Positions 22,911-32,913 of a stretch of DNA of 35,468 nt are shown piece after piece. The DNA is from a virus. Under the pieces are notes generated by a model that made no database searches, had not been told where the DNA came from, and saw only the letters and a list, made by a program, of their open reading frames with translations. Location of the stretch: positions 1-35,468 of IMG/VR virus record IMGVR_UViG_3300006854_000037; one strand, written 5' to 3'. A program made the position numbers and the translations under genes. Positions within the stretch are counted from its first letter, which is position 1. Each line of letters starts with the position of its first letter.

Positions 22911-23915
22911 GTGGGCGCGTTGACCGCGTTGTTTGAGGCGTTGGCGGCTAAGTCAGCTGAGGGGGCCGGCGGTAAGGCAGTGGACGCGGTGGGCAACACG
23001 TTCATGCGCGGCGCCGAGCTGCCGGGGACGTTCCAGCGGGGTAAGGAGTTTGCGAAGACCCCCGAGGGCCTAGCCGCGCAGTTCGACTGGTCCGTCCCGC
23101 AGCGTCGCTCCGACGGGGTCACCATCTACAAGGACCCCAATAGCGACGCCAACGTCTACCTGTTTGCGCAGAACTACGCCGAGCTGCTCAAGAAGGACGC
23201 TGAGCTGCGCAAGCGTCTGGGGTTGCAGGAGGGCACTACTTACAGCCCCTTCATTGACCGCGGCGACCTCCCGCAGGACGCTACGTATTACACAATCGGG
23301 GCGGGGCGCCTGGCCCAGGGCTCCGGTGCGGGCACGCGCGCCTACCCGGCTATCTACGGGGACATCCTGAACAACCCCAACGCGGTGAACATTAAGGACG
23401 GCCTGACGGGCGTCAACGAGTACCGCAACAACTACAACCTCGCCTCGGCTATCATGCGCCGCCCTGACGCCGGGGAGCGCCTACTCACCAGCCCGGAACA
23501 GTTCAGGAACGTGCTCGCGGACCCCGCCGCGCTGCGCACCGCCGCGCCGGAGACCCAGGTGGGCGCACTTCAGACCGAGGGCGCGCTGCAGACCCTTCAG
23601 CGTCTACTCGCTGCTACGACGGACAAGGCCACGCCGGAGGCGTTGCGCGCCCGGCTGGGCAACCTCACGTTCAGCAGCGACATGAGCCCCGCGGACCTGA
23701 ACGCGGCCTATGCGGCGGTGAAGGCGAGTAACAGCGCCGCGCTGAAGTCCACCGGCCCGGGCGCGCTGCGCAAGCTCGGCATTACGAGCGACGCGCTACA
23801 GGGCCGGGACGTGAACCCCGCGGCGTTCAAGGGGCTCGAGTTCAGCCACGGGGGCGCCCTGCGTAAGACCTCACCCGCTGCGTCAGTCCGCCGCGGTGGC
23901 GTGCAGCGGCGCTAG
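22911..23915 (+). CDS. Virion protein with polyvalent-protein-like segment, 334 aa
   Basis: The GTG at 22911 directly follows the previous stop. Residues 105-190 contain GTTYSPFIDRGDLPQDATYY, then GAGRLAQGSGAGTRAYPAIY and GLTGVNEYRNNYNLASAIMR. From memory, this resembles a segment in large polyvalent phage proteins and in internal virion proteins. The C-terminus carries FSHGGAL (23841 onward) and RRGGV, the recurring motif. The last 33 bases overlap the convergent deacetylase-fold gene on the other strand. The function is not assigned; a virion or injected protein is likely from context. Confidence 0.6.
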   Translation: MGALTALFEALAAKSAEGAGGKAVDAVGNTFMRGAELPGTFQRGKEFAKTPEGLAAQFDWSVPQRRSDGVTIYKDPNSDANVYLFAQNYAELLKKDAELRKRLGLQEGTTYSPFIDRGDLPQDATYYTIGAGRLAQGSGAGTRAYPAIYGDILNNPNAVNIKDGLTGVNEYRNNYNLASAIMRRPDAGERLLTSPEQFRNVLADPAALRTAAPETQVGALQTEGALQTLQRLLAATTDKATPEALRARLGNLTFSSDMSPADLNAAYAAVKASNSAALKSTGPGALRKLGITSDALQGRDVNPAAFKGLEFSHGGALRKTSPAASVRRGGVQRR

Positions 23916-24770
23916 CTCGGGGCTGGCGTAGACCACCTGCGCGGTCTTCATCGTGCGCATGTGCAGGTGAACGGTCCGCGCGCCGTTGTACCCGCCCGCG
24001 AAGTTGAAGACGCAGGGGAGGTTGTTGTTCGCGCAGTGTTGGAAAACCAGCATGTCTCGCGCCTCCCAGCCGTAGTCGTCCAGATAGCCCGCGCCGTAGG
24101 GGTCCTCCTTGTGCGCGTCGGCGCCGGCCTGGTACAGCACCAGGTCCCACTGACGCTCACGCAGCGCGCCCTTAATGCTCATCTCCCACACCACGGGGCT
24201 GATGCTGTGCCGACCCTCCCCGCGGTGCGTCAGGTTGACGATGCCCGCGAGCCCCATGCGTTCGATGATGTCGTCGGTGCCGTTGCCGTAGTGGGCGTCG
24301 CCGTCGATGACCAGCACGTTCTTAAGCGCGCCGGGGTTGTGTACGCGGTAGTCTTGCACCGCGAGCAGGAGCCCGTTGAAGGTGCAATAGCCCGCGGACT
24401 CCGCCCATCCTGCGTGATGGAACCCGCTCACGGGGGCGCAGATGATGTCTCGGCCCTGGGCCTTCACCGCCTGCCGTACCGCCTCCACCATGACGCCGCA
24501 GGAGAGCATCGCGTGCTCCACCGGGGTGCCCGGCTGGAAGCCCTCCAGCTTAGCAAAGCCGTCCAGACGGCGCCCCTTCAGCACGCCGTCTGCGTGGTGC
24601 GGAGAGTGCGCGAGGTACAGCTGAGGGTGCGCGAGCGCGTGGGCGTCAATGATCTTGCCCTTGTGGTGCGGCAGAAAGACGTTCATTACCGCGCTAGACT
24701 TAGACAAGCTGATGCGTTTGTCCTGCGCGTAGGACGCCAGGTGAGGAATCCAGACGACGTGGAGGCTCAT
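23883..24770 (-). CDS. Histone-deacetylase-fold Zn amidohydrolase, 295 aa
   Basis: AAGGAG lies 5 bases before the ATG at 24770, and the ATG overlaps the previous stop (ATGA). The arginase/deacetylase active site appears complete: the His-His dyad in SGFHHAGWAES (H118, H119), GYCTFNGLLLAV, DGDAHYGNGT (D156, D158, H160), YQAGADAHKEDPYG (D218) and AGGYN (Y261). Zn ligands are expected to be D158, H160 and D218, with Y261 completing the oxyanion site. The family removes acetyl or related acyl groups from lysine, polyamines or other amines. The substrate here is unknown. Last gene of a putative DNA-hypermodification operon that also encodes two GNATs. Candidates are an acetylated DNA base or nucleotide, acetyl-polyamine, or an acetylated protein. 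Confidence 0.85.
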   Translation of the reverse strand: MSLHVVWIPHLASYAQDKRISLSKSSAVMNVFLPHHKGKIIDAHALAHPQLYLAHSPHHADGVLKGRRLDGFAKLEGFQPGTPVEHAMLSCGVMVEAVRQAVKAQGRDIICAPVSGFHHAGWAESAGYCTFNGLLLAVQDYRVHNPGALKNVLVIDGDAHYGNGTDDIIERMGLAGIVNLTHRGEGRHSISPVVWEMSIKGALRERQWDLVLYQAGADAHKEDPYGAGYLDDYGWEARDMLVFQHCANNNLPCVFNFAGGYNGARTVHLHMRTMKTAQVVYASPELAPLHATAAD

Positions 24771-25183
24771 CTGAGCTCCTTCACGACGAACTCAATGGGA
24801 GCGTAACGTTCCGCAATGAGCTGGAGATACTGCTGCGCCCACTTCAGCTCATTGAGCGTGCTGTAGAAGCAGACAGCGCGGATGACGGCAGCTTCTTGGC
24901 TCGTGAGTTCCAGGTCATTGGCCTGCAGGAAGCGTTCCACGTCGTTGGCGTGATCCACCGGGGTGCCGTTCTGCGAAGCTTTCCAGCGTTCTTCCATCAA
25001 CTTGTCGAGGAAGTGTCCCGCCTTCTCGACGTCCTGCAACCCGTTCTTCTTGGCGTGGCGGCAGATGTACTTGGTAATCTGACCCTCGAGGTACCCCAGG
25101 CCCACGTCTTCCACAAAGTCCCAGTGCTGATAGGCAGAGCGGTAGTGCGCCCCCCCGACCTGACGTTCATTTGCTGAGCTCAT
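24767..25183 (-). CDS. DUF3310 family protein, 138 aa
   Basis: The start at ATG 25183 is supported by AGAGGGA just upstream and by alignment: MSSANERQVGGAHYRS is the usual DUF3310 beginning. The body WDFVEDVGLGYLEGQITKYI followed by CRHAKKNGLQDVEKAGHFLD is diagnostic. DUF3310 proteins are common in phage nucleotide-metabolism regions and are sometimes labelled nucleotide kinase, without firm evidence. The gene overlaps the HD nucleotidase by 17 bases upstream and the deacetylase-fold gene by 4 bases downstream. A role in handling nucleotides for the modified DNA is inference from position. Confidence 0.85.
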   Translation of the reverse strand: MSSANERQVGGAHYRSAYQHWDFVEDVGLGYLEGQITKYICRHAKKNGLQDVEKAGHFLDKLMEERWKASQNGTPVDHANDVERFLQANDLELTSQEAAVIRAVCFYSTLNELKWAQQYLQLIAERYAPIEFVVKELR

Positions 25184-25748
25184 CGAATTCCCTCTTGAGG
25201 TGGTTGAACAAAGTGAGCGCTCGGGTGCGCAGCCCACCGACGTCGGTCGCCTTAATGAGACGCTCGATGTACTCCAGGTAAGTGCGCGCGCAGCCGTTGT
25301 ACTCCCGGCTGAGGACCATTCGGTTGCCGAGGAGCGCCTCTCGCAGGCAGTAGAAGCCTCCTTCCAGCGAGTCCGCTAGCTTCAGGGTCGCAGCTTCCTC
25401 CTCCGTCAGTGGGTGCGCGCCGAGGTCGAAGTGATGCGCCACGAGGTGCGCACGCTCCGCCTCGTCGAGCATGGAGTTGAGCCGCAACGCGAGCTTGGTA
25501 GGAGCGGGAACGTCTCCCGTTCTGCGCTCCCCGGCGTCGTGCGCCAACGCCTGGATCAGCAACGCCGCAGTGGGGGCGCCTCCGGTCAGGATGTAGCAGA
25601 ACCACGCTACGTTGAAGGAGTGCTGACCCACGTCCTGCGTGCGCAGCATGACCTCCGTGTGGTAGCGCTGGGTCTGGCCGAACTGCGTAGCGGCGACCGC
25701 CTGCTTTATCAGGCGTTCCATCGCTACGGCGGTGTTGACGATGCTCAC
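25167..25748 (-). CDS. HD-domain 5'-deoxynucleotidase-like phosphohydrolase (YfbR-like), 193 aa
   Basis: The GTG at 25748 overlaps the stop of the TS-family gene (GTGA); an upstream extension of the frame lies inside that gene. The HD motif set is present: GQHSFNVAWF (first His), ALAHDAGERRTGDVPAPTK (HD pair with the GDVP element typical of YfbR-type dNMP phosphatases) and KLADSLEGGFYC (last Asp). The family dephosphorylates 5'-dNMPs. Next to a TS-family enzyme it could remove dTMP or other monophosphates so that 5-hmdUMP is favoured. That role is inference. Confidence 0.8.
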   Translation of the reverse strand: MSIVNTAVAMERLIKQAVAATQFGQTQRYHTEVMLRTQDVGQHSFNVAWFCYILTGGAPTAALLIQALAHDAGERRTGDVPAPTKLALRLNSMLDEAERAHLVAHHFDLGAHPLTEEEAATLKLADSLEGGFYCLREALLGNRMVLSREYNGCARTYLEYIERLIKATDVGGLRTRALTLFNHLKREFDELSK

Positions 25749-26791
25749 GCTGTACCCCCTACGCCGCCCGCAACCTTCAGGGCACGCTTCTCGGCGATGC
25801 GCAAGAGCCAGTCGTGACCGGCACTCAGCCAATCCCAGTTGTGCGCGCCGCGGTTGGACAGGCGCAGGATAGCGTGGCTCAGGTCACCCGCTTTGTACTG
25901 CTTGTACGCCTTGTCCATCTCGTGCGCGATGGCGCAGAACTCAGTGCTGTAAAGATGTTCCTCTCCGTCCAACACGCGGAGCACTTCCTCGTAGAACTTG
26001 GAGTCCGCAGCTCCCAGCGGGGTGGGACGCACCTTGCGTGCGGAGGTGAGTCGGTAACGATCATCGAGGAGTAGCTCAGAAGTGTTGAACAGCTTCACCA
26101 CGTCTTCGCGCTCGATGTAGGCGTGGAAGTTGTTCGCCATCTGGTAGTACGCGCCCCCCTTCACGCCCACCAGGTCCGCCACGTATTCCTGCAACACGCT
26201 GAAGTGCACAGCGTTCGCGCCGTAGGCGCCCCAGATGATGTCGTTACTGCGGTTGCACACCGTCATGTCCAACGCGCCCGCGTTGACGCGGAAGTACACG
26301 TGGGTGTTGCAGGGGACATCCTTCCCGCCCGCGATGGCGCGCTTCAGGTCGCCTTCGTAGCCCTCGACTTCATCCATGGCGTCCCACATGCTCAGCACGC
26401 AGCGCCGACTGGCGGGGTTGCGCTTGAGTTCATTGATGATTTCCCGCAACTGGTCGTAGCCGAAGTGCTCACGCCAACGGTAGCCGTAGGCGCCGTTGAG
26501 CGTCTCGGTGTCGTCGCTGTACAGCATCATCGGGGCATAGGTGTGGGGGTAGGCCACGTCATTGCGCCCGGCGAGCATCCACAGGCTCTCGAGCACGTGG
26601 AAAAACGGGTTTGCGTTGCGTTGTGCGCTGAACAGCACGCGCTCCTGCGGGCGCAGGTACTGGGTGGTCACGGGTACGGGGGCGACGAGCACCGCCCCGT
26701 TGCGGGAGTCCTCCCGTAGGCCGTGGCGCTTCAGATACTCGACCCCTGTGTAGAGGGCGTCGTTGACATTGGTGGCGTGGATGACGTGCAT
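25745..26791 (-). CDS. Thymidylate-synthase-family enzyme, likely dUMP hydroxymethylase, 348 aa
   Basis: The ATG overlaps the previous stop (TAATG) with GGAG upstream. TS landmarks are visible: ESLWMLAG (E68), AYGYRWREHF, NPASRRCVLSMWD (paired Arg), DVPCNTHVYF (nucleophile C161), CNRSNDIIWGAYGANAVHFS (N193) and NNFHAYIE. The retained Asn at the position that is Asp in dCMP hydroxymethylases argues for a uracil substrate. The sequence departs from cellular ThyA in several blocks. Sitting in one operon with 5-hmdU kinase-type genes, it most likely makes 5-hydroxymethyl-dUMP rather than dTMP. Sequence alone cannot exclude ordinary thymidylate synthase. Confidence 0.8.
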   Translation of the reverse strand: MHVIHATNVNDALYTGVEYLKRHGLREDSRNGAVLVAPVPVTTQYLRPQERVLFSAQRNANPFFHVLESLWMLAGRNDVAYPHTYAPMMLYSDDTETLNGAYGYRWREHFGYDQLREIINELKRNPASRRCVLSMWDAMDEVEGYEGDLKRAIAGGKDVPCNTHVYFRVNAGALDMTVCNRSNDIIWGAYGANAVHFSVLQEYVADLVGVKGGAYYQMANNFHAYIEREDVVKLFNTSELLLDDRYRLTSARKVRPTPLGAADSKFYEEVLRVLDGEEHLYSTEFCAIAHEMDKAYKQYKAGDLSHAILRLSNRGAHNWDWLSAGHDWLLRIAEKRALKVAGGVGGTA

Positions 26792-27660
26792 TAATGCTCC
26801 GGTGGGGGTGAGTAGCGTGAACGGGGTTTACCTTGACCTAGACGTACGCGTTCGTATTTGTCAAACTCACACAGGCAATTCTGCAGGTTTTGCCCATCGA
26901 GAAACGGCATACGGGTACGGCGGACTTCAGGCTCAATGATTGTATACAAGGCGTTGAATTCCCGAAACCAAGAATTGTGCTGCGTCCAGGATGACGTAGG
27001 CGCACGCCCGCGCACCCGGTTGAGCCCGCGTAGGCTGCCCGGCCCCGGAGTAGCCCAGGTGTCCAGGTCGGCGGCCATTTGCAGCGGAAAGGTGAAGTGC
27101 TTAGCGTCCGCCACCACCTGCCCCGCCATGAAATCGCCCATGTCTCGGTACAGCTTGAGCCGGGCGTGAAAGGCGGCTAGGGTGTCGCCCTTGCGAGGGC
27201 GGATATGCTCACGGTCCTTCCACATCGGCGTCAGGACGTACTCCGCCAAGTAAGCAGCCTTGGTGCCGCCGATTACGGCGTCCGCTCTCACCATGTACGC
27301 TCCCGTGAAGACTTTGTCCCCCGCAGCGCGGCGGGCGTCTAGCGCATCAACAAACCACTTGGGGTGCCACTTACCAGACACGCCAGGGGGAGCGCCTATC
27401 TCTTCCAGCGACGGCCACCAGTTGATCAATCGCGCCACTACGCACGCAAACCACAGGTCCGGCGCGTCGCGGTTGGGCTTCAGCCAGTTGTCGTGAATGA
27501 GCACCGTCTGCTTGTCTAGCTCGCGGTAGACGTTACAAAAGCGGTACGCCTTCAGTATGGGGTCGTCAGTCCACGGCCAAGGCATGCCGCGCTTGCGCGT
27601 CTCGTATACGGCGTGCCGCGCCTGCATGAAGCGGAACAGGGCGCGTTCCCCGTCTGTCAT
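26791..27660 (-). CDS. 5-hmdU DNA kinase helical-domain protein (hypermodification enzyme), 289 aa
   Basis: The start at ATG 27660 follows GGAGG and overlaps the previous stop (ATGA). Conserved blocks are ALFRFMQARHAVYETR, PWTDDPILKAYRFCNVYREL (residues 30-48), MGDFMAGQVVADAK, ATPGPGSLRGLNRVRGR and LQNCLCEFDKYERVRLGQGK (near 259-278). I recognise these as the helical domain that Pfam calls HMUDK_hel, associated with 5-hmdU DNA kinases and base hypermodification. It is related to the DNA-glycosylase-like alpha-glutamyl/putrescinyl-thymine pyrophosphorylase group. Here it is a separate gene next to the P-loop kinase. It probably recognises DNA or takes part in the transfer step. Family recall is from memory. 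Confidence 0.7.
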   Translation of the reverse strand: MTDGERALFRFMQARHAVYETRKRGMPWPWTDDPILKAYRFCNVYRELDKQTVLIHDNWLKPNRDAPDLWFACVVARLINWWPSLEEIGAPPGVSGKWHPKWFVDALDARRAAGDKVFTGAYMVRADAVIGGTKAAYLAEYVLTPMWKDREHIRPRKGDTLAAFHARLKLYRDMGDFMAGQVVADAKHFTFPLQMAADLDTWATPGPGSLRGLNRVRGRAPTSSWTQHNSWFREFNALYTIIEPEVRRTRMPFLDGQNLQNCLCEFDKYERVRLGQGKPRSRYSPPPEH

Positions 27661-27842
27661 AGCGCATCCTCCCACGCCCACCCAAAGCACCAACGCATCA
27701 TGAAGCGATGCGCCCACGCGGGCTTGCGCGTCATTGCGATCTTGAAGTTGCCGCCGATGCAGTAGTAGCCTATGTAAGCCGGCATCACTGCGAACGTGTA
27801 GTAGTTAAGAGGGAGCGCATCAATGCGGTCATCCTTGTTCAC
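27657..27842 (-). CDS. Small hypothetical protein, 61 aa
   Basis: The GTG start at 27842 overlaps the kinase stop (GTGA) with AAGGAG upstream, and the stop overlaps the next ATG. The sequence is rich in aromatic residues (YYTFAVMPAYIGYYCIGGNF, then RFMMRWCFGWAWEDAL). It is not clearly a membrane span and has no metal motif beyond two separated Cys. Its placement between the kinase and the helical-domain gene suggests an accessory subunit. I do not recognise a family. Confidence 0.6.
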   Translation of the reverse strand: MNKDDRIDALPLNYYTFAVMPAYIGYYCIGGNFKIAMTRKPAWAHRFMMRWCFGWAWEDAL

Positions 27843-28435
27843 GCCGGCTCCTTACTCAACCGCACCCCGAACAGCTTCAGCACGTCGGTCACCGCGTGGG
27901 TGTGGCGGATGTCCACAATGCGCACCTGGCTGCCCAGCCGACGCATCTGGTCCTTGGTCCGCGCCACGTTCTCGAACTTCACGGTGGTGTTGTGTGGGTT
28001 CAAGGGCTCGAAGTTTCCTTTAGCCGCCCGGCGTTGCTTGATGCGCTCGAGGCACAGCTCAAGGGGCGTGTCCAGGAAGGCGAAGACGGCGTTGGGTGCG
28101 TAGTGGCTCATCAACTGACCCACAGAGCCGTAGCTGGAGCTCACCAACGCGCCTTCTAGCAGAACGTGTTCGTAGTGCTTGGCGTAGTCCGCGATGCGGT
28201 CAAGTATGAGTGAGTACGGCTGGATGCCGTCCGCTCCGCCGCACTGCGTGTGATAAGAGCCTATGATGGCTAGACGTTGCTTGGGCGCTACTTGCAACAA
28301 ATACCCTTCAACACGCCCTTTCTTGTCCGGATTGATGGGCTGCCACTTGTCTTTGTGGTCGTACAAACCCAGGATGCGTTGCACGATCGTGCTCTTCCCG
28401 CTCCCGTGAGTTCCGCGAATGCTGACGATGGTCAT
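27839..28435 (-). CDS. P-loop kinase, 5-hmdU DNA kinase type, 198 aa
   Basis: The ATG at 28435 overlaps the previous stop (ATGA) with AAGGCG upstream. Walker A is GTHGSGKST (residues 8-16). LLEGALVSSSYGSVGQL follows a hydrophobic strand (Walker B-like region), and RIKQRRAAKGN provides the Arg-rich lid. The chain is about the size of deoxynucleoside-kinase-fold enzymes, and the pattern matches the P-loop proteins shown to phosphorylate 5-hydroxymethyl-dU within DNA in phages such as M6 and ViI. It would create the phosphorylated intermediate to which an amino acid is attached. A free-nucleotide kinase is the alternative, but the context favours DNA. Confidence 0.75.
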   Translation of the reverse strand: MTIVSIRGTHGSGKSTIVQRILGLYDHKDKWQPINPDKKGRVEGYLLQVAPKQRLAIIGSYHTQCGGADGIQPYSLILDRIADYAKHYEHVLLEGALVSSSYGSVGQLMSHYAPNAVFAFLDTPLELCLERIKQRRAAKGNFEPLNPHNTTVKFENVARTKDQMRRLGSQVRIVDIRHTHAVTDVLKLFGVRLSKEPA

Positions 28436-28845
28436 TCTTCGCCTTTCATGTACGCACCCCACTTAGCGTTGAACTCAGCGGCGGGGAGCCGGGCCTTGTC
28501 CTTCAGGAAGCGCCGGAACTTCCTGAGCTCGGACTTGTCATTGTCCGTCAGAGTAGACTTAGCCAGCAGGGTCTCCAGCTTAGCTGCGTTGGGCTGCATC
28601 GTGGGCGGGCGCTTCATCAACTCCCTGGTCAACGGCCCAAATGCAGCTCGGTTGCGTGCTGCGCAGAACGGGCAGCTGCCGTCCGCGTTCATGTTACCCG
28701 GCGCGGCGCCGCAACCGGCGCAGTAACCGGGGCGGGAGCTGTCGTAGTGTCCCATGGCGTTCATCTCCAGTTGAAGTAGCGTTGAGAACTTAGGCGTGCC
28801 GGCTACGTCTCCGGCGAGCCAGGCGGACATACCGCGGCGGGTCAC
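28432..28845 (-). CDS. Small zinc-ribbon protein, 137 aa
   Basis: The GTG at 28845 overlaps the flavoenzyme stop (GTGA) with GGAGGGG upstream; an ATG at residue 6 is an alternative. CAGC and CPFC, separated by about 14 residues (in a PGYCAGCGAAPGNMNADG context), form a probable four-Cys zinc ribbon. The C-terminal half is helical and basic (KSELRKFRRFLKDKARLP). A DNA- or protein-binding accessory of the modification enzymes is plausible. No family is recognised. Confidence 0.6.
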   Translation of the reverse strand: MTRRGMSAWLAGDVAGTPKFSTLLQLEMNAMGHYDSSRPGYCAGCGAAPGNMNADGSCPFCAARNRAAFGPLTRELMKRPPTMQPNAAKLETLLAKSTLTDNDKSELRKFRRFLKDKARLPAAEFNAKWGAYMKGEE

Positions 28846-29666
28846 AATCGCCCCTCCTCGACAAAACGCAGCGCCTGCGCCGCGGCGAGCAGCGTGCCGT
28901 TCTTGGCCCCGCCGGTGGATACGAACGTGCGCGGGCTGATGCGCTTGAAGAACCCCGCCTTGTGTTCCTCCACGTAGGGGCGGATGCCCTCCGTTACCTT
29001 GACGCCTTGTAGCTGGCGCAACTCCGATAGCTTCGTGATGCGCTGGACGGTGGCCGCAATGCGATTGTCTCGCTCGGCTTCCCAGGTCTTCCTGATCAGC
29101 GCGGTGCCGTCACCACCCCATGCTTCGGTCTTGTTGAGTTGAAACAGCACAGATTGACGGTATGGCGCGTAAACGCTGATTTTGGCCTGTACCCCCGTGG
29201 CCTTGAAACGCATTGATGCGCCGTACAAACCCCTGATTGGAGGCATTTCAACCAGCCGCCCACACCATACCCCAGCGGCTACCAGGACGGTCCCGCGGAG
29301 CGTGCGTCCGTCGTTCAGAGCCACAGCGCCGTCCTTGACGCTCGTAACGTCCGCCGTCACATCCGCCTTCACGCGCACGCGGTCAGGGTCCACGCGCTGA
29401 GCCTTGAAGGGGGCGCCCAGGGGGCCGGTGAACACCACGTCCTGCAGCCCGTACAGCTCGTCTAGCAGCCGCAGCCCGTGGTCCACGTCGGTCTTGTTGA
29501 GGCTCGTGAGCCAGCTGGGCGCGAGCACGCAGCCTGACGCCTTACTCGCCGCCATGGGCTCGTTGTTGCTCACCACGGTCACGTTGTGCCCGCGGGAGCG
29601 GCAGAGCGTGGCGGCGATAGAACCGAACAGACCATTGCCTACGATGATCACGTCCTTAGGTGTCAT
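28842..29666 (-). CDS. FAD-dependent DAO-type oxidoreductase / DNA-base lyase candidate, 274 aa
   Basis: The ATG at 29666 follows GGAGAAG and overlaps the previous stop (ATGA); the longer upstream frame is in other genes. The N-terminus DVIIVGNGLFGSIAATLCRS has the GxGxxG dinucleotide motif (G10, G12, G15), followed by SKASGCVLAPSWL. VLVAAGVWCGRLVEMP is the usual second FAD motif, and TGGAKNGTLLAAAQAL closes the fold. The arrangement is that of the DAO/glycine-oxidase (ThiO) family, but at 274 aa it is shorter than the usual 370 or so. In thymidine hypermodification, a flavin-dependent lyase cleaves a glycyl-type adduct to leave an aminomethyl group. This is the natural candidate for that step. 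Confidence 0.75.
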   Translation of the reverse strand: MTPKDVIIVGNGLFGSIAATLCRSRGHNVTVVSNNEPMAASKASGCVLAPSWLTSLNKTDVDHGLRLLDELYGLQDVVFTGPLGAPFKAQRVDPDRVRVKADVTADVTSVKDGAVALNDGRTLRGTVLVAAGVWCGRLVEMPPIRGLYGASMRFKATGVQAKISVYAPYRQSVLFQLNKTEAWGGDGTALIRKTWEAERDNRIAATVQRITKLSELRQLQGVKVTEGIRPYVEEHKAGFFKRISPRTFVSTGGAKNGTLLAAAQALRFVEEGRL

Positions 29667-29791
29667 TTCTTCTCCATGCAAATGCAACCGTCGCGGGTGC
29701 CGACTTTGTCCGTGACGAGATAAGCGGCTCCCATGAGCAGCGCCCCTAGCATGACGCCGCATACGAGTGCGAAGGCTTTCTTGAGGCTCAT
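29663..29791 (-). CDS. Small single-span membrane protein, 42 aa
   Basis: The ATG at 29791 overlaps the previous stop (ATGA) with GGGAGAAG upstream. The protein has a basic start (MSLKK), a hydrophobic helix of about 20 residues (AFALVCGVMLGALLMGAAYL) and a short tail with two Cys. It could be a signal-anchored inner-membrane peptide. Its presence between modification genes is unexplained. It is translated in the same coupled series. Confidence 0.6.
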   Translation of the reverse strand: MSLKKAFALVCGVMLGALLMGAAYLVTDKVGTRDGCICMEKK

Positions 29792-30006
29792 GGCTTCTCC
29801 CACCCGATGATGGTCTTGCACCCTTGGCAGATGACGGCGCAGTAGGGGAGCCGCAACCAGCGGCGCCACGTAGATTGAACCTGCCCCCGCATGAACAAGT
29901 CTCGCGGGGTGAGCTCGCGTCCACCGAATGGGTCACACTGATCACAACTCAGCCCTGTGGGAGGGGCTTTGTCTTTCAGCAACGTATATTCAATTGGCAT
30001 GGTCAT
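29788..30006 (-). CDS. Small zinc-ribbon-like protein, 72 aa
   Basis: The start is probably ATG 30006 (or ATG 30000), both inside the end of the upstream GNAT gene and without a clear ribosome site, so translation may depend on re-initiation. The protein has CDQC near the N-terminus and CQGCKTIIGW near the C-terminus, a likely four-Cys zinc ribbon with the two halves separated by about 45 residues, and a basic middle (RGQVQSTWRRWLRLPY). The function is unknown. The gene ends in the ATGA overlap with the 42-aa gene. Confidence 0.55.
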   Translation of the reverse strand: MTMPIEYTLLKDKAPPTGLSCDQCDPFGGRELTPRDLFMRGQVQSTWRRWLRLPYCAVICQGCKTIIGWEKP

Positions 30007-30562
30007 AGCGGAGGCCGCGTCGAATAAGGGAGTCAATGCTAGCCTGAGTAAGGGGTTTCGGGCTAGGGGCCTGGGGCGGAACTGCACCAGGAGGGTAGAT
30101 GTGCTCATGACCGGGTAGCGGCGAGTAGACAAACACCTCCCCTGTGGGCACTTGCCCCCAGCACCTATGCCCTAGCGCCTTGTGCAACCCCAACCCGGCG
30201 CTGGAGCCTGCTAGGCTCTTCACGTGGCGGCAGCCAGCGCGCACCGCTTCCTTTTCCATCTCGGCGTACAGCCGGTAAGCGTAGCCTTTGCGGCGGAACT
30301 CTGGTAGTGTGTAAGCTGCGTACCAATTTACGCACGGCAGCCAGACGTTGGTTTTCTTCTTCCCGAGCTTCGAAGCGTGAATGCTCAACGGTACGTCGTG
30401 GCTGTCAACGTAAGCCCAGACACGCGCGCCCCAGAAGACGTAGAGCCCCAGCTCTTGCAGGACGGGGTGACGCTCCGCGCCCGCCTCACGCATCCTCTTC
30501 ACTTGCAAGTTGACGAGCCGTTGGTCCTCCGGCACGCCCTTAGTGAGTTCGATGATCTTCAT
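29990..30562 (-). CDS. GNAT acetyltransferase, candidate base-amine acetyltransferase, 190 aa
   Basis: The ATG at 30562 overlaps the HNH gene stop (ATGA) with AAAGG upstream. The GNAT acetyl-CoA loop is RRKGYA (residues 90-95) after the strand VWLPCVNWYAAYTLPEFR, followed by the helix YRLYAEMEKEAVRAGC. A Pro-rich linker (about 160-175, GAVPPQAPSPKPLTQ) leads to a short basic helix. In the PaMx11-type pathway an acetyltransferase caps the aminomethyl group of modified dU. This gene, inside the same cassette as kinase, transferase and flavoenzyme, is the best candidate here. Resemblance to the Mu Mom branch of GNAT-like DNA modifiers is possible but not shown. Confidence 0.75.
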   Translation of the reverse strand: MKIIELTKGVPEDQRLVNLQVKRMREAGAERHPVLQELGLYVFWGARVWAYVDSHDVPLSIHASKLGKKKTNVWLPCVNWYAAYTLPEFRRKGYAYRLYAEMEKEAVRAGCRHVKSLAGSSAGLGLHKALGHRCWGQVPTGEVFVYSPLPGHEHIYPPGAVPPQAPSPKPLTQASIDSLIRRGLRYDHAN

Positions 30563-31083
30563 GCTTGGGCCTTTCTGCGGGCCCAAGCGGCGCGCATCTT
30601 AGCTTTGGTTTCTTCTGTGTGAAGCTTGCCAAACCTAGAGTGCTCAGGTCCGTGCTTACCCTTCATAGGGTTGGCTTCATTCATCCGTTTGCGCGCTGCG
30701 GCTCTGGTAGACTCAGGAATTACGTTTCCTTTGTTTGCAGCGCCTATCTTCTTGCGTGTTTCAGGGCTTAGCGGCCTGCCCGTCAACGCCTTGCTGATTG
30801 CCGAGCCCCGTTTGCGCATCTGCTCCGGTGTGATTACTTGGTTGATGTGTCTGCCTTTGGAGATAGCGTCTTGCTGGTTGTCCCTTGGCGTACCTAGAAA
30901 GTGGTGCGCATCCAAGATACAGGCAGCGTTGTCGCAGGTATGGCAGACGTACATTCCTTTAGTGGGCATCCCGTGCCTGCGCTCATACACGCGACGGTAA
31001 GCTTCGTCGGCCGGATGTTCTAGACATCCATTGCGCCAGGTAGCTTCGGCTTCGTAGTCAGACACGGACTTGTACGCCGGCAT
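30559..31083 (-). CDS. HNH homing endonuclease with NUMOD3 motifs, 174 aa
   Basis: The ATG at 31083 lies inside the last 26 bases of the transferase gene. Residues 38-66 (HGMPTKGMYVCHTCDNAACI, then HHFLGT) form an HNH nuclease core with Cys/His metal ligands. GRPLSPETRKKIGAANKG (102-119) and GKLHTEETKAKM (152-163) are NUMOD3 DNA-binding repeats typical of free-standing phage homing endonucleases. The gene, and the 3' part of the transferase gene next to it, are richer in A/T than the surroundings, a sign of recent entry. It could also cut competing phage DNA that lacks the modification, but this is speculation. Confidence 0.85.
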   Translation of the reverse strand: MPAYKSVSDYEAEATWRNGCLEHPADEAYRRVYERRHGMPTKGMYVCHTCDNAACILDAHHFLGTPRDNQQDAISKGRHINQVITPEQMRKRGSAISKALTGRPLSPETRKKIGAANKGNVIPESTRAAARKRMNEANPMKGKHGPEHSRFGKLHTEETKAKMRAAWARRKAQA

Positions 31084-31975
31084 TCAGTAGCCCCGTCTTC
31101 AGTTGTTTGGCCAAGTCTCCCCAGCCTTCTAAGCTATGCAAAACTTCTTTAGTGTCTTTACCAATCGGGTAGTGGCCTCTTCTGTAACTCTTGTACTTAC
31201 ACAGTACGGTTTCCGTTTCGAAAAGATCCGGCTTACGATGCGTCAGTCCTAGGGCCTTGTGATTGCGGAAGTGCTTGATCAGACGAGCGACCGTCGTCTT
31301 GAAATCTTCATCGCGTATCGGGTAGTCCCAAGGAGTGTCCGCGTAAGGAATCTCTCCGCCAGCCACAGGCCAACGCGCGGCGGGCTCGCTTTCGAAAAAC
31401 ACCAAAGCGGCCCCCTTGCGGGGTTCATCGTAGAATTGTAGCTCGCAGTCAGCGAAGTCCACGGGGAACCTCAGCACACGCTCGGTCATGTCAGCGATCT
31501 TGAATCCTATCCACGACCCGAACCCCCGGTGGGTTTTGACCCGGTTCATGATTTGGGTGAATGTGACCTTTTCCAGCTGTCCGTTCGTCGTCATGCCGCG
31601 TACTGCGTCCGTGGGGGTGTTGTAGCGGGATTGCAGCGAAGCCATCGAGCTGACCGCCTGCGCACCGCGGTAGTGTCGGCGCTCCGCCCCGCGGGGCCAG
31701 GGCTGGTGACCCGGCTTGTTCAGCTCGCTCACCGGGGAGTACACCGCCGCTTGCATCATCAGCGACCAGTACGCCTTGTCGGACTTTGCCTCCGCCATCT
31801 TGGCCGCGGCGCCGAGATGATAGTAGCACCAATACGCGAGGCAAAGACGGTGCAATGTCTTCTGGTCGAGCTTGGCTTCGTTTATCGCGATGTACGTGGG
31901 GTCGAGGTCACCCGACTTGAGCAGCTGCGCGCCGAAGGCCTCCACGGTGAGAGGCGGCGTAGGTATAGCGGACAA
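31058..31975 (-). CDS. Amino acid:DNA transferase-like protein (ADDT type), 305 aa
   Basis: The frame is open far upstream, but the best start is TTG 31975, six bases after AAGGAG; the region further upstream is a structured leader. Conserved blocks are GDLDPTYIAINEAKL, RLCLAYWCYYHLGAAAKM, WPRGAERRHYRGAQA (93-107) and GFGSWIGFKIADMTERVL (151-168). I recognise these from phage proteins annotated as amino acid:DNA transferase, related to the glycosylase-like aGPT pyrophosphorylase group. The expected reaction joins an amino acid to phosphorylated 5-hmdU in DNA. Both the rare start codon and the hairpins before it suggest limited or controlled expression. Confidence 0.7.
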   Translation of the reverse strand: MSAIPTPPLTVEAFGAQLLKSGDLDPTYIAINEAKLDQKTLHRLCLAYWCYYHLGAAAKMAEAKSDKAYWSLMMQAAVYSPVSELNKPGHQPWPRGAERRHYRGAQAVSSMASLQSRYNTPTDAVRGMTTNGQLEKVTFTQIMNRVKTHRGFGSWIGFKIADMTERVLRFPVDFADCELQFYDEPRKGAALVFFESEPAARWPVAGGEIPYADTPWDYPIRDEDFKTTVARLIKHFRNHKALGLTHRKPDLFETETVLCKYKSYRRGHYPIGKDTKEVLHSLEGWGDLAKQLKTGLLNAGVQVRV

Positions 31976-32000
31976 GGGTAGCTCCTTGGCTGTGGTGAAT

Positions 32001-32070
32001 TGTTTGAGGAGCCGCCTGCAGCGTTTTCTCGTCGGCAGATCACGGGACTGTGCCCGCGGCTCCTCAAACA
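32001..32070 (-). promoter_or_regulatory. Structured RNA leader with a perfect 15-bp stem
   Basis: TGTTTGAGGAGCCGC at 32001-32015 and its exact reverse complement at 32056-32070 enclose a 40-base loop. The loop can itself form two small stems (GGG/CCC at about 32054 to 32043, and CTGC/GCAG at about 32037 to 32016), giving a three-way junction. The element lies between the basic-linker gene and the transferase gene. It ends 25 bases before the TTG start and 13 bases before its ribosome site. It may be an RNA processing site, an attenuator or a translational control element. Confidence 0.6.
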
Positions 32071-32072
32071 AC

Positions 32073-32100: not shown

Positions 32101-32913
32101 TTATGCCGTCACCAGGATGCCGCGGGAGGCGTCCAGCGCGTACGTGACGTAAGTGCGGATCCAGCCCACGTCGCGGCCCTCGGCGCCGGGCAGGCCGCTG
32201 GCAGCTTCGAGCAGCGTGTCGACGGTGAAGCCCTTTCCGCGGGTGCCCTTCTCGAGCCCCGCAGCGCAATCGATGAACTCCAGCATGAAACCGCGCTTGA
32301 CGGTCTCGCGGTTGCCCACCTTGAGGCGGACGTCACCGCTGATGGCCGGTGCGCGACCGCGCGGAGCGCTCTCGGCTTCGGCCTTGGGCTTGCCAGCCTT
32401 CTTCGCAGCCGGAGCGGGCTCGGCCTTGGCGGCGGGGCGCTCCTTCGGGGCCTTGACGTTGTGGGGTGCCTGCGCGGAGACGACCGCGTCGGCTTCGGCG
32501 AGGGCTTCCTTCCGGGTGCGCTTGGGGGCGACGGCCACTTCTTCAGCGACCTGAGCGGCGGATTTACGAGCCATGGTAGACTTTCCTTTGGGGGTGTGGT
32601 TGAGAATCGAAAGGGCAGGGTACGCAGCGGCATCGTATGCGTAGGTCGGGTCACTGAGGATAGCCTCGAGGTGCTCTCGCGCCTCGGGGGTCACCGCCTT
32701 GTCCGGCGCACGCAAGAAAATTTCCGCCGCACGGCGCACCGGGTAGCTCGTCAGCGGGGTGTAGTCGCTGGCGAACGTTCGGTTCTCAAGCTGCCGCACT
32801 CGCACCTCGAGGGCTTCCATTGGGATGAAATACGTGTACTTCCGCTCTTCATTGATGAAGATGCAAGAGTGTCGATTCTCGTCCTGAAAGACCGCGTAGT
32901 TCGTGAACGTCAT
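32101..32913 (-). CDS. Two-part protein with basic Ala/Lys/Pro linker, 270 aa
   Basis: The ATG at 32913 has GGAG about 11 bases upstream. Residues 1-110 form a compact N-terminal part (YAVFQDENRHSCIFINEERK, then TYFIPMEALEVRVRQLENRT). Residues 114-190 are a disordered Ala/Lys/Pro/Glu linker like a histone H1 or HU tail (RKEALAEADAVVSAQAPHNV, KAGKPKAEAESAPRGRAPA). Residues 192-270 look like a small globular domain (KGFTVDTLLEAASGLPG, GRDVGWIRTYVTYALDASRG) similar in style to phage winged-helix pieces. A second in-frame start at 32574 could give a 157-aa product lacking the N-terminal part. DNA binding is inferred from the basic linker. The family is not recognised. Confidence 0.65.
   Translation of the reverse strand: MTFTNYAVFQDENRHSCIFINEERKYTYFIPMEALEVRVRQLENRTFASDYTPLTSYPVRRAAEIFLRAPDKAVTPEAREHLEAILSDPTYAYDAAAYPALSILNHTPKGKSTMARKSAAQVAEEVAVAPKRTRKEALAEADAVVSAQAPHNVKAPKERPAAKAEPAPAAKKAGKPKAEAESAPRGRAPAISGDVRLKVGNRETVKRGFMLEFIDCAAGLEKGTRGKGFTVDTLLEAASGLPGAEGRDVGWIRTYVTYALDASRGILVTA
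32572..32589 (-). promoter_or_regulatory. Internal in-frame ribosome site and ATG (32574)
   Basis: AAAGGA at 32589-32584 lies nine bases upstream of ATG 32574, in frame with the 270-aa gene. Translation from here would give a 157-aa protein beginning MARKSAAQVAEEVAV. The site is as good as, or better than, that of the full-length start, so two products from one gene are likely. Confidence 0.5.

What the first reader, a model, noticed from the sequence alone, without database searches (positions are those of the whole stretch)
25745..31975. Thymidine-hypermodification cassette with an unusual gene set
Seen: a TS-family gene, HD nucleotidase, HMUDK-type helical-domain gene, P-loop kinase, DAO-type flavoenzyme, GNAT acetyltransferase and amino acid:DNA transferase-like gene, mostly in one overlapping leftward series. 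Established: in phages M6, ViI and PaMx11, 5-hmdU in DNA is phosphorylated, given an amino acid, then remodelled by flavin lyases, PLP or radical-SAM enzymes and acetyltransferases. Inference: no PLP or radical-SAM gene is visible here, so an acetylaminomethyl-type dU is the predicted end product in this phage.
Basis: partly seen in the sequence, partly recalled or inferred. Interest (0 to 1): 0.85.

Follow-up and report, generated by a model that had tools for sequence, protein, structure and literature searches.

The report
Phage thymidine-hypermodification operon, divergent acetyltransferase
This phage carries a complete set of genes for replacing some of the thymine in its DNA with a chemically decorated version, as Pseudomonas phage PaMx11 does, but the last decorating step seems to use a different, unrelated acetyltransferase.

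Summary
Window 25745-31975 (- strand) encodes a TS-family gene, HMUDK_hel, a 5-hmdU DNA kinase, a flavin-dependent lyase, a GNAT and an amino acid:DNA transferase (ADDT); an HD nucleotidase follows at 25167-25748. Gene order matches Pseudomonas phage PaMx11 gp46-53. The transferase and flavoenzyme match the solved PaMx11 'Glycinyltransferase' and 'Flavin-dependent lyase' over full length. No radical-SAM family member or M6 PLP/radical-SAM orthologue was found in the window or in an identical overlapping contig. What is new: the GNAT is not an orthologue of PaMx11 gp48 (hhalign probability 1.3%). It is a rare phage family ('GNAT-B') found beside the lyase in three phages, on two branches of the lyase tree. 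Across 52 non-redundant lyase loci the amine cap is GNAT-A (12), GNAT-B (3), an amidoligase (21) or none (16), never two. An intact HDAC-like gene ends the operon (23883-24770), but relatives keep it without the cassette, so it is probably not part of the pathway. No chemistry could be tested.

The parts
31058..31975 (-). ADDT, amino acid:DNA transferase (predicted glycinyltransferase); TTG start with AAGGAG upstream
   Evidence: PF18724 3.4e-21; PDB 8z2m 'Glycinyltransferase' (identical in sequence to PaMx11 gp46 over the aligned part) 2.8e-51 and 25qc 7.4e-52; 34 of 36 columns that are at least 95% conserved in 55 relatives are kept
32000..32071 (-). strong RNA hairpin in the leader of ADDT
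   Evidence: 21-nt arms, 90% complementary; z = -4.8 for the 136-nt leader; no Rfam match
30559..31083 (-). HNH/NUMOD3 protein of homing-endonuclease type; insertion, not part of the pathway
   Evidence: PF07460 1.4e-9; PHROG endonuclease matches; absent from the colinear locus L024
   Evidence: PF00583 2.1e-5; orthologues between ADDT and FAD in L024 (52%) and L028 (48%); GNAT fold, pLDDT 81; R-x-x-G-x-A motif at 90-95
29788..30000 (-). 70-aa CxxC...CxxC protein, unknown
   Evidence: ORF overlapping the end of GNAT; only in this phage
29663..29791 (-). about 42-aa hydrophobic peptide ORF, unknown
   Evidence: only in this phage
28842..29666 (-). flavin-dependent lyase (DAO fold)
   Evidence: PF01266 8.9e-12; PDB 8z2o/8z79 'Flavin-dependent lyase' 2.3e-40 and 2.0e-39; all 32 columns at least 95% conserved in 60 relatives are kept
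28432..28845 (-). 137-aa CxxC/CxxC protein, no family
   Evidence: only in this phage
27839..28435 (-). 5-hmdU DNA kinase (P-loop)
   Evidence: PF18748 7.3e-8; tblastn to PaMx11 gp49 1e-23; all 13 conserved columns kept
26791..27660 (-). HMUDK_hel, helical-domain partner of the 5-hmdU DNA kinase
   Evidence: PF18723 6.4e-45; PaMx11 gp50 1e-36; all 22 conserved columns kept
25745..26791 (-). TS-family gene, predicted dUMP hydroxymethylase
   Evidence: phrog_5131 8.6e-106; 44% identity to PaMx11 gp51; best PDB match CMP 5-hydroxymethylase 7.7e-15; PC-N and R-S-N-D motifs kept
25167..25748 (-). HD-domain 5'-nucleotidase (YfbR-like)
   Evidence: PF12917 7.3e-8; all 12 conserved columns kept
24767..25183 (-). 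DUF3310 protein, conserved cassette neighbour
   Evidence: PF11753 1.4e-6; PaMx11 gp53 region 1e-14
23883..24770 (-). HDAC-like amidohydrolase, last gene of the operon; probably a lineage gene rather than a pathway step
   Evidence: PF00850 3.9e-26; HH dyad 118-119, D158/H160/D218 zinc ligands and Y261 conserved; also in relatives without ADDT/FAD

Best explanation
The operon replaces part of the thymidine in phage DNA with a 5-(N-acylaminomethyl)-dU, probably 5-acetylaminomethyl-dU. Predicted order: (1) the TS-family enzyme makes 5-hydroxymethyl-dUMP, while the HD nucleotidase and DUF3310 protein trim the nucleotide pool; (2) 5-hmdU is polymerised into DNA; (3) HMUDK with HMUDK_hel phosphorylates 5-hmdU in DNA; (4) ADDT displaces the phosphate with the amino group of glycine, giving N-alpha-glycyl-thymidine; (5) the flavin lyase cuts the glycyl group, leaving 5-aminomethyl-dU; (6) GNAT-B caps the amine from acyl-CoA. 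Steps 1-5 follow from homology to enzymes characterised in M6/ViI/PaMx11 (established pathway; nothing assayed here). Step 6 is inferred from linkage, exclusivity with other amine caps and fold.
For: Profiles for every core enzyme. ADDT and lyase match solved PaMx11 enzymes over full length. Same gene order as PaMx11 and as most of 59 lyase loci. Family-conserved residues are kept in the core enzymes, with 0 of 32 lost in the lyase and 2 of 36 in ADDT. No radical-SAM family match in the window or the overlapping contig, and no M6 PLP or radical-SAM orthologue. GNAT-B lies between ADDT and lyase in three phages, overlapping the lyase start in two, and occurs on two separate branches of the lyase tree. 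Cap genes (GNAT or amidoligase) occur in 38 of 58 ADDT loci with the lyase but 1 of 33 without it (Fisher 1e-9), and GNAT and amidoligase never co-occur (p 7e-5), as expected if all use the amine made by the lyase. GNATs of both types are basic in 19 of 19 cases, whereas TS and HD are mostly acidic.
Against: No chemistry was observed. GNAT-B is not homologous in sequence to PaMx11 gp48 beyond the GNAT fold, so substrate and acyl group are not transferred by homology. A 36%-identical GNAT-B relative occurs in a 143-kb phage that has HMUDK_hel and a kinase relative but no detectable ADDT or lyase, so GNAT-B need not act on the lyase product. Association tests count related phages as independent, and about half of the lyase-free loci are short contigs.
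Confidence: 0.72

Rival explanations
1. The end product is bare 5-aminomethyl-dU (or glycyl-T), and GNAT-B acts elsewhere, for example on a host protein, tRNA or small amine.
For: 16 of 52 non-redundant lyase loci have no recognised cap gene, so capping is not obligatory; a GNAT-B relative exists in a phage without ADDT or lyase; several top structural matches are tRNA- or protein-acetylating GNATs, though Foldseek ranks within GNAT say little.
Against: GNAT-B sits between ADDT and lyase in all three lyase phages that have it, never with another cap, on two branches of the lyase tree.
Confidence: 0.2
2. GNAT-B transfers a different acyl group, or acylates the glycyl-T amine before or instead of lyase action, giving a base other than 5-acetylaminomethyl-dU.
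For: Non-orthologous to the PaMx11 acetyltransferase; placed before the lyase gene rather than after it; the conserved C-terminal SPLPGHE...PPQ.P segment is not part of the Pfam GNAT match.
Against: Retains the ordinary acyl-CoA motif and gives no hint of a specialised acyl pocket; the lyase is kept intact.
Confidence: 0.2
3. The HDAC-like enzyme is a pathway step: it removes or edits an acyl group on the modified base or nucleotide.
For: Last gene of the same operon, start codon overlapping the DUF3310 stop, catalytic residues intact; also in L024, the only other phage here with both GNAT-B and HDAC.
Against: Relatives of the same clade with 59-65 kb contigs keep HDAC without ADDT, lyase or HMUDK_hel; L028 has GNAT-B and no HDAC in its 8.7 kb; HDACs are acidic or neutral in 55 of 55 cases.
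Confidence: 0.08

Closest known systems
Pseudomonas phage PaMx11 thymidine hypermodification (gp46-gp53)
   Same: Same enzymes in the same order: ADDT, flavin lyase, GNAT, kinase, HMUDK_hel, TS, HD, DUF3310-like; 34-44% protein identity for the five core enzymes
   Different: GNAT is a different family and lies before the lyase; HNH, two small ORFs and a 137-aa ORF are inserted; HDAC-like gene follows; phage structural genes look podovirus-like (portal, DNA ejection protein)
Pseudomonas phage M6 / Salmonella phage ViI pathways
   Same: TS-family, kinase, HMUDK_hel and ADDT (M6 gp51 38% identity to the window ADDT)
   Different: M6 has a PLP enzyme (gp52, annotated threonine dehydratase) and gp53 (annotated DNA repair photolyase, taken as the radical-SAM enzyme) and no lyase in this place; neither has a relative in the window phage
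Uncultured phages L024 (IMGVR_UViG_3300000439_000035) and L028 (IMGVR_UViG_3300045993_000222)
   Same: ADDT-GNAT-B-lyase-kinase-HMUDK_hel-TS-HD-DUF3310; L024 also ends with HDAC
   Different: No HNH or 137-aa insert; L024 has a DnaJ-domain gene between kinase and HMUDK_hel
Histone deacetylase / acetylpolyamine amidohydrolase superfamily
   Same: Window 23883-24770 keeps all catalytic residues
   Different: Substrate unknown; viral acetylpolyamine amidohydrolases characterised so far are from giant viruses (PMC9992855)

Membership tests
PaMx11-type thymidine hypermodification cassette | TS-family dUMP hydroxymethylase | tested here: met
   phrog_5131 8.6e-106; 44% to PaMx11 gp51; hydroxymethylase rather than methylase activity not testable
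PaMx11-type thymidine hypermodification cassette | 5-hmdU DNA kinase plus HMUDK_hel | tested here: met
   PF18748 7.3e-8, PF18723 6.4e-45; conserved columns kept
PaMx11-type thymidine hypermodification cassette | Amino acid:DNA transferase of the glycine type | tested here: met
   Closest solved relative is 'Glycinyltransferase' 8z2m; M6 and PaMx11 ADDTs 37-38% identical; amino acid used not testable
PaMx11-type thymidine hypermodification cassette | Flavin-dependent lyase | tested here: met
   8z2o 2.3e-40, 32 of 32 conserved columns
PaMx11-type thymidine hypermodification cassette | Acetyltransferase orthologous to gp48 | tested here: not met
   tblastn none; hhalign probability 1.3%; replaced by GNAT-B
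PaMx11-type thymidine hypermodification cassette | Modified base present in virion DNA | not testable with these tools
   needs LC-MS
M6/ViI-type (PLP and/or radical-SAM remodelling) | PLP and radical-SAM genes in the cassette | tested here: not met
   PF04055 0 matches in the window record and overlapping contig; M6 gp52/gp53 tblastn no significant match; PLP families at large were not scanned
GNAT superfamily | GNAT fold and acyl-CoA motif | tested here: met
   PF00583 2.1e-5; AlphaFold model pLDDT 81, PDB GNAT matches from E 3.5e-6
HDAC-like amidohydrolase | HH dyad, D/H/D zinc ligands, catalytic Tyr | tested here: met
   alignment A4
HDAC-like gene as member of the hypermodification cassette | Occurs with ADDT/lyase and not without | tested here: not met
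   Four clade relatives have HDAC without ADDT, lyase or HMUDK_hel, one has HDAC and HMUDK_hel only

The most novel reading that the evidence does not exclude
The lyase step creates a primary amine that different phages cap with interchangeable, unrelated enzymes: the PaMx11-type GNAT, the window-type GNAT-B, or an amidoligase usually paired with a low-molecular-weight-phosphatase-like protein. The window is one setting of this slot. The amidoligase phages would carry an undescribed aminoacyl- or peptidyl-type aminomethyl-dU, and GNAT-B may transfer an acyl group other than acetyl.
Probability: 0.45. Interest if true: 0.65.

Novelty: new variant of a known kind. Interest (0 to 1): 0.45.

Why it matters
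It shows the PaMx11 route in a phage outside the Pseudomonas siphoviruses. It also defines a testable rule: a lyase-made amine in phage DNA is capped by one of several mutually exclusive enzymes. That predicts new DNA bases from gene content alone and supplies new candidate enzymes for acylating or ligating amines on intact DNA.

Tried and rejected
M6-type radical-SAM/PLP remodelling: no match. HDAC as pathway enzyme: rejected as primary because relatives keep it without the cassette. GNAT as the PaMx11 gp48 orthologue: rejected. HNH gene as part of the modification: rejected, homing-type and absent from L024. Rfam: nothing. Near DNA matches in the phage collection: none. Single-sequence scans of viral contigs returned only the identical contig, so alignments were used. 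GNAT-B in 85k bacterial and archaeal genomes: none found by pattern scan. Lee 2018, Lee 2022 and Wen 2024 papers are not in the library; the PaMx11 end product is cited from memory.
Full report
WHAT IS THERE. The window is a whole IMG/VR virus record. A second contig, IMGVR_UViG_3300050505_000030 (48831 bp), is 100% identical over its 19.6-kb overlap and extends the same phage by about 29 kb beyond the right end, adding a PolA DNA polymerase, ligase, a protein with DUF3854/DUF5906 domains (primase/helicase-like) and nucleases. On the - strand, reading leftward, the genes are: SNF2-type helicase, a 270-aa Lys/Ala-rich protein, ADDT, HNH/NUMOD3, GNAT, two small ORFs, flavin lyase, 137-aa ORF, kinase, a 61-aa ORF, HMUDK_hel, TS family, HD, DUF3310 and an HDAC-like protein. 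Structural genes run convergently from the left.

WHAT IT IS. PaMx11 has ADDT gp46, lyase gp47, acetyltransferase gp48, kinase gp49, HMUDK_hel gp50, TS gp51, HD gp52, gp53, and then PolA. The window is colinear except for the GNAT position and insertions. M6 instead has gp52 (annotated threonine dehydratase, the PLP enzyme) and gp53 (annotated DNA repair photolyase, taken here as the radical-SAM enzyme) between ADDT and kinase. Neither has a relative in the window or the overlapping contig, and the radical-SAM family has none. The chemistry of PaMx11 (glycyl-T, 5-aminomethyl-dU, then acetylation) is established knowledge.

THE GNAT. The window GNAT has the GNAT fold (AlphaFold pLDDT 81; PDB GNAT matches) and the acyl-CoA motif, but no detectable similarity to gp48 by tblastn; profile-profile probability is 1.3%. 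With the alignment-based scan, relatives exist in three other phages: L024 (52%) and L028 (48%), both between ADDT and lyase, and a 143-kb phage, L147 (36%), that has HMUDK_hel and a kinase relative but no detectable ADDT or lyase. A pattern scan of bacterial and archaeal genomes found none. On a lyase tree the window and the L024+L028 pair lie on separate branches, with two changes of label forced by well-supported forks.

A CAPPING SLOT. In 59 lyase loci (52 after removing 90%-identical copies), cap genes are GNAT-A 12, GNAT-B 3, amidoligase 21 (most with an LMW-phosphatase-like gene) and none 16, with no locus holding two. The amidoligase label rests on a sub-threshold Pfam match (PF12224, 0.0015), the phosphatase-like label on PF01451 4.9e-19. 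GNAT/amidoligase exclusivity has Fisher p 7e-5; cap presence among ADDT loci is 38/58 with the lyase and 1/33 without it, p 1e-9. These p-values ignore relatedness, and many lyase-free contigs are short, so they are indicative. The simplest account is that these enzymes all act on the amine that the lyase makes. GNAT-A and GNAT-B are basic in 19/19 cases; TS and HD are mostly acidic. Inference: the GNATs act on DNA, TS and HD on nucleotides.

THE HDAC-LIKE GENE. It is intact and closes the operon, as in L024. However, clade relatives L148, L150, L152 and L153, which share the convergent structural genes, carry HDAC after a TS-like and a dCMP-deaminase gene with no ADDT, lyase or HMUDK_hel anywhere in their contigs; L149 has HDAC with HMUDK_hel, TS, HD and DUF3310 but no ADDT or lyase. 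It is best read as a lineage gene of unknown target. In L155 the same HDAC family lies directly after an HD gene in a PurZ/MazG-like cluster typical of 2-aminoadenine phages; L167, L174, L177, L178 and L180 share clusters from that layout by sequence clustering. The recent Z-phage paper does not mention a deacetylase or amidohydrolase in its main text (PMC12884076).

HOW SURE. That the cassette hypermodifies thymidine: about 0.9 (inference from homology and synteny). That the end product is an N-acylaminomethyl-dU: about 0.7. That the acyl group is acetyl: about 0.6. Nothing chemical was shown here.

Noticed in passing
L032, L036, L042, L044, L046, L051, L052, L058, L061, L065, L008 (phage Simon): A large group of lyase cassettes carries an amidoligase-like gene (PF12224, weak) plus, in most, an LMW-phosphatase-like gene (PF01451) between lyase and kinase, predicting an undescribed ligated aminomethyl-dU.
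   Followed up: partly
L155; also L167, L174, L177, L178, L180: HDAC-like genes related to the window's lie next to PurZ, MazG-like and HD genes of 2-aminoadenine (Z) phages; PurZ and MazG-like were confirmed by Pfam in L155 only, the others share clusters.
   Followed up: partly
L022:12242-12946: FkbM-type methyltransferase between kinase and HMUDK_hel in a lyase cassette without a GNAT; possible N-methyl cap.
   Followed up: no
window 32000-32071 (-): Very stable hairpin (z -4.8 for the leader) just upstream of ADDT; possible regulatory or processing site.
   Followed up: no
window 32101-32913 (-); L024:7437-8252: A Lys/Ala-rich protein precedes ADDT in both phages; PaMx11, Epa5, Simon and M6 have a similarly built protein in that place, without detectable sequence similarity to the window's.
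   Followed up: partly
L147 (143.5-kb contig): GNAT-B relative in a large phage with HMUDK_hel and a kinase relative but no detectable ADDT or lyase: a possible different amine source.
   Followed up: partly
L149 (65.5-kb contig): HMUDK_hel (in a 521-aa open frame), TS, HD, DUF3310 and HDAC but no ADDT or lyase: a reduced or different pathway.
   Followed up: no
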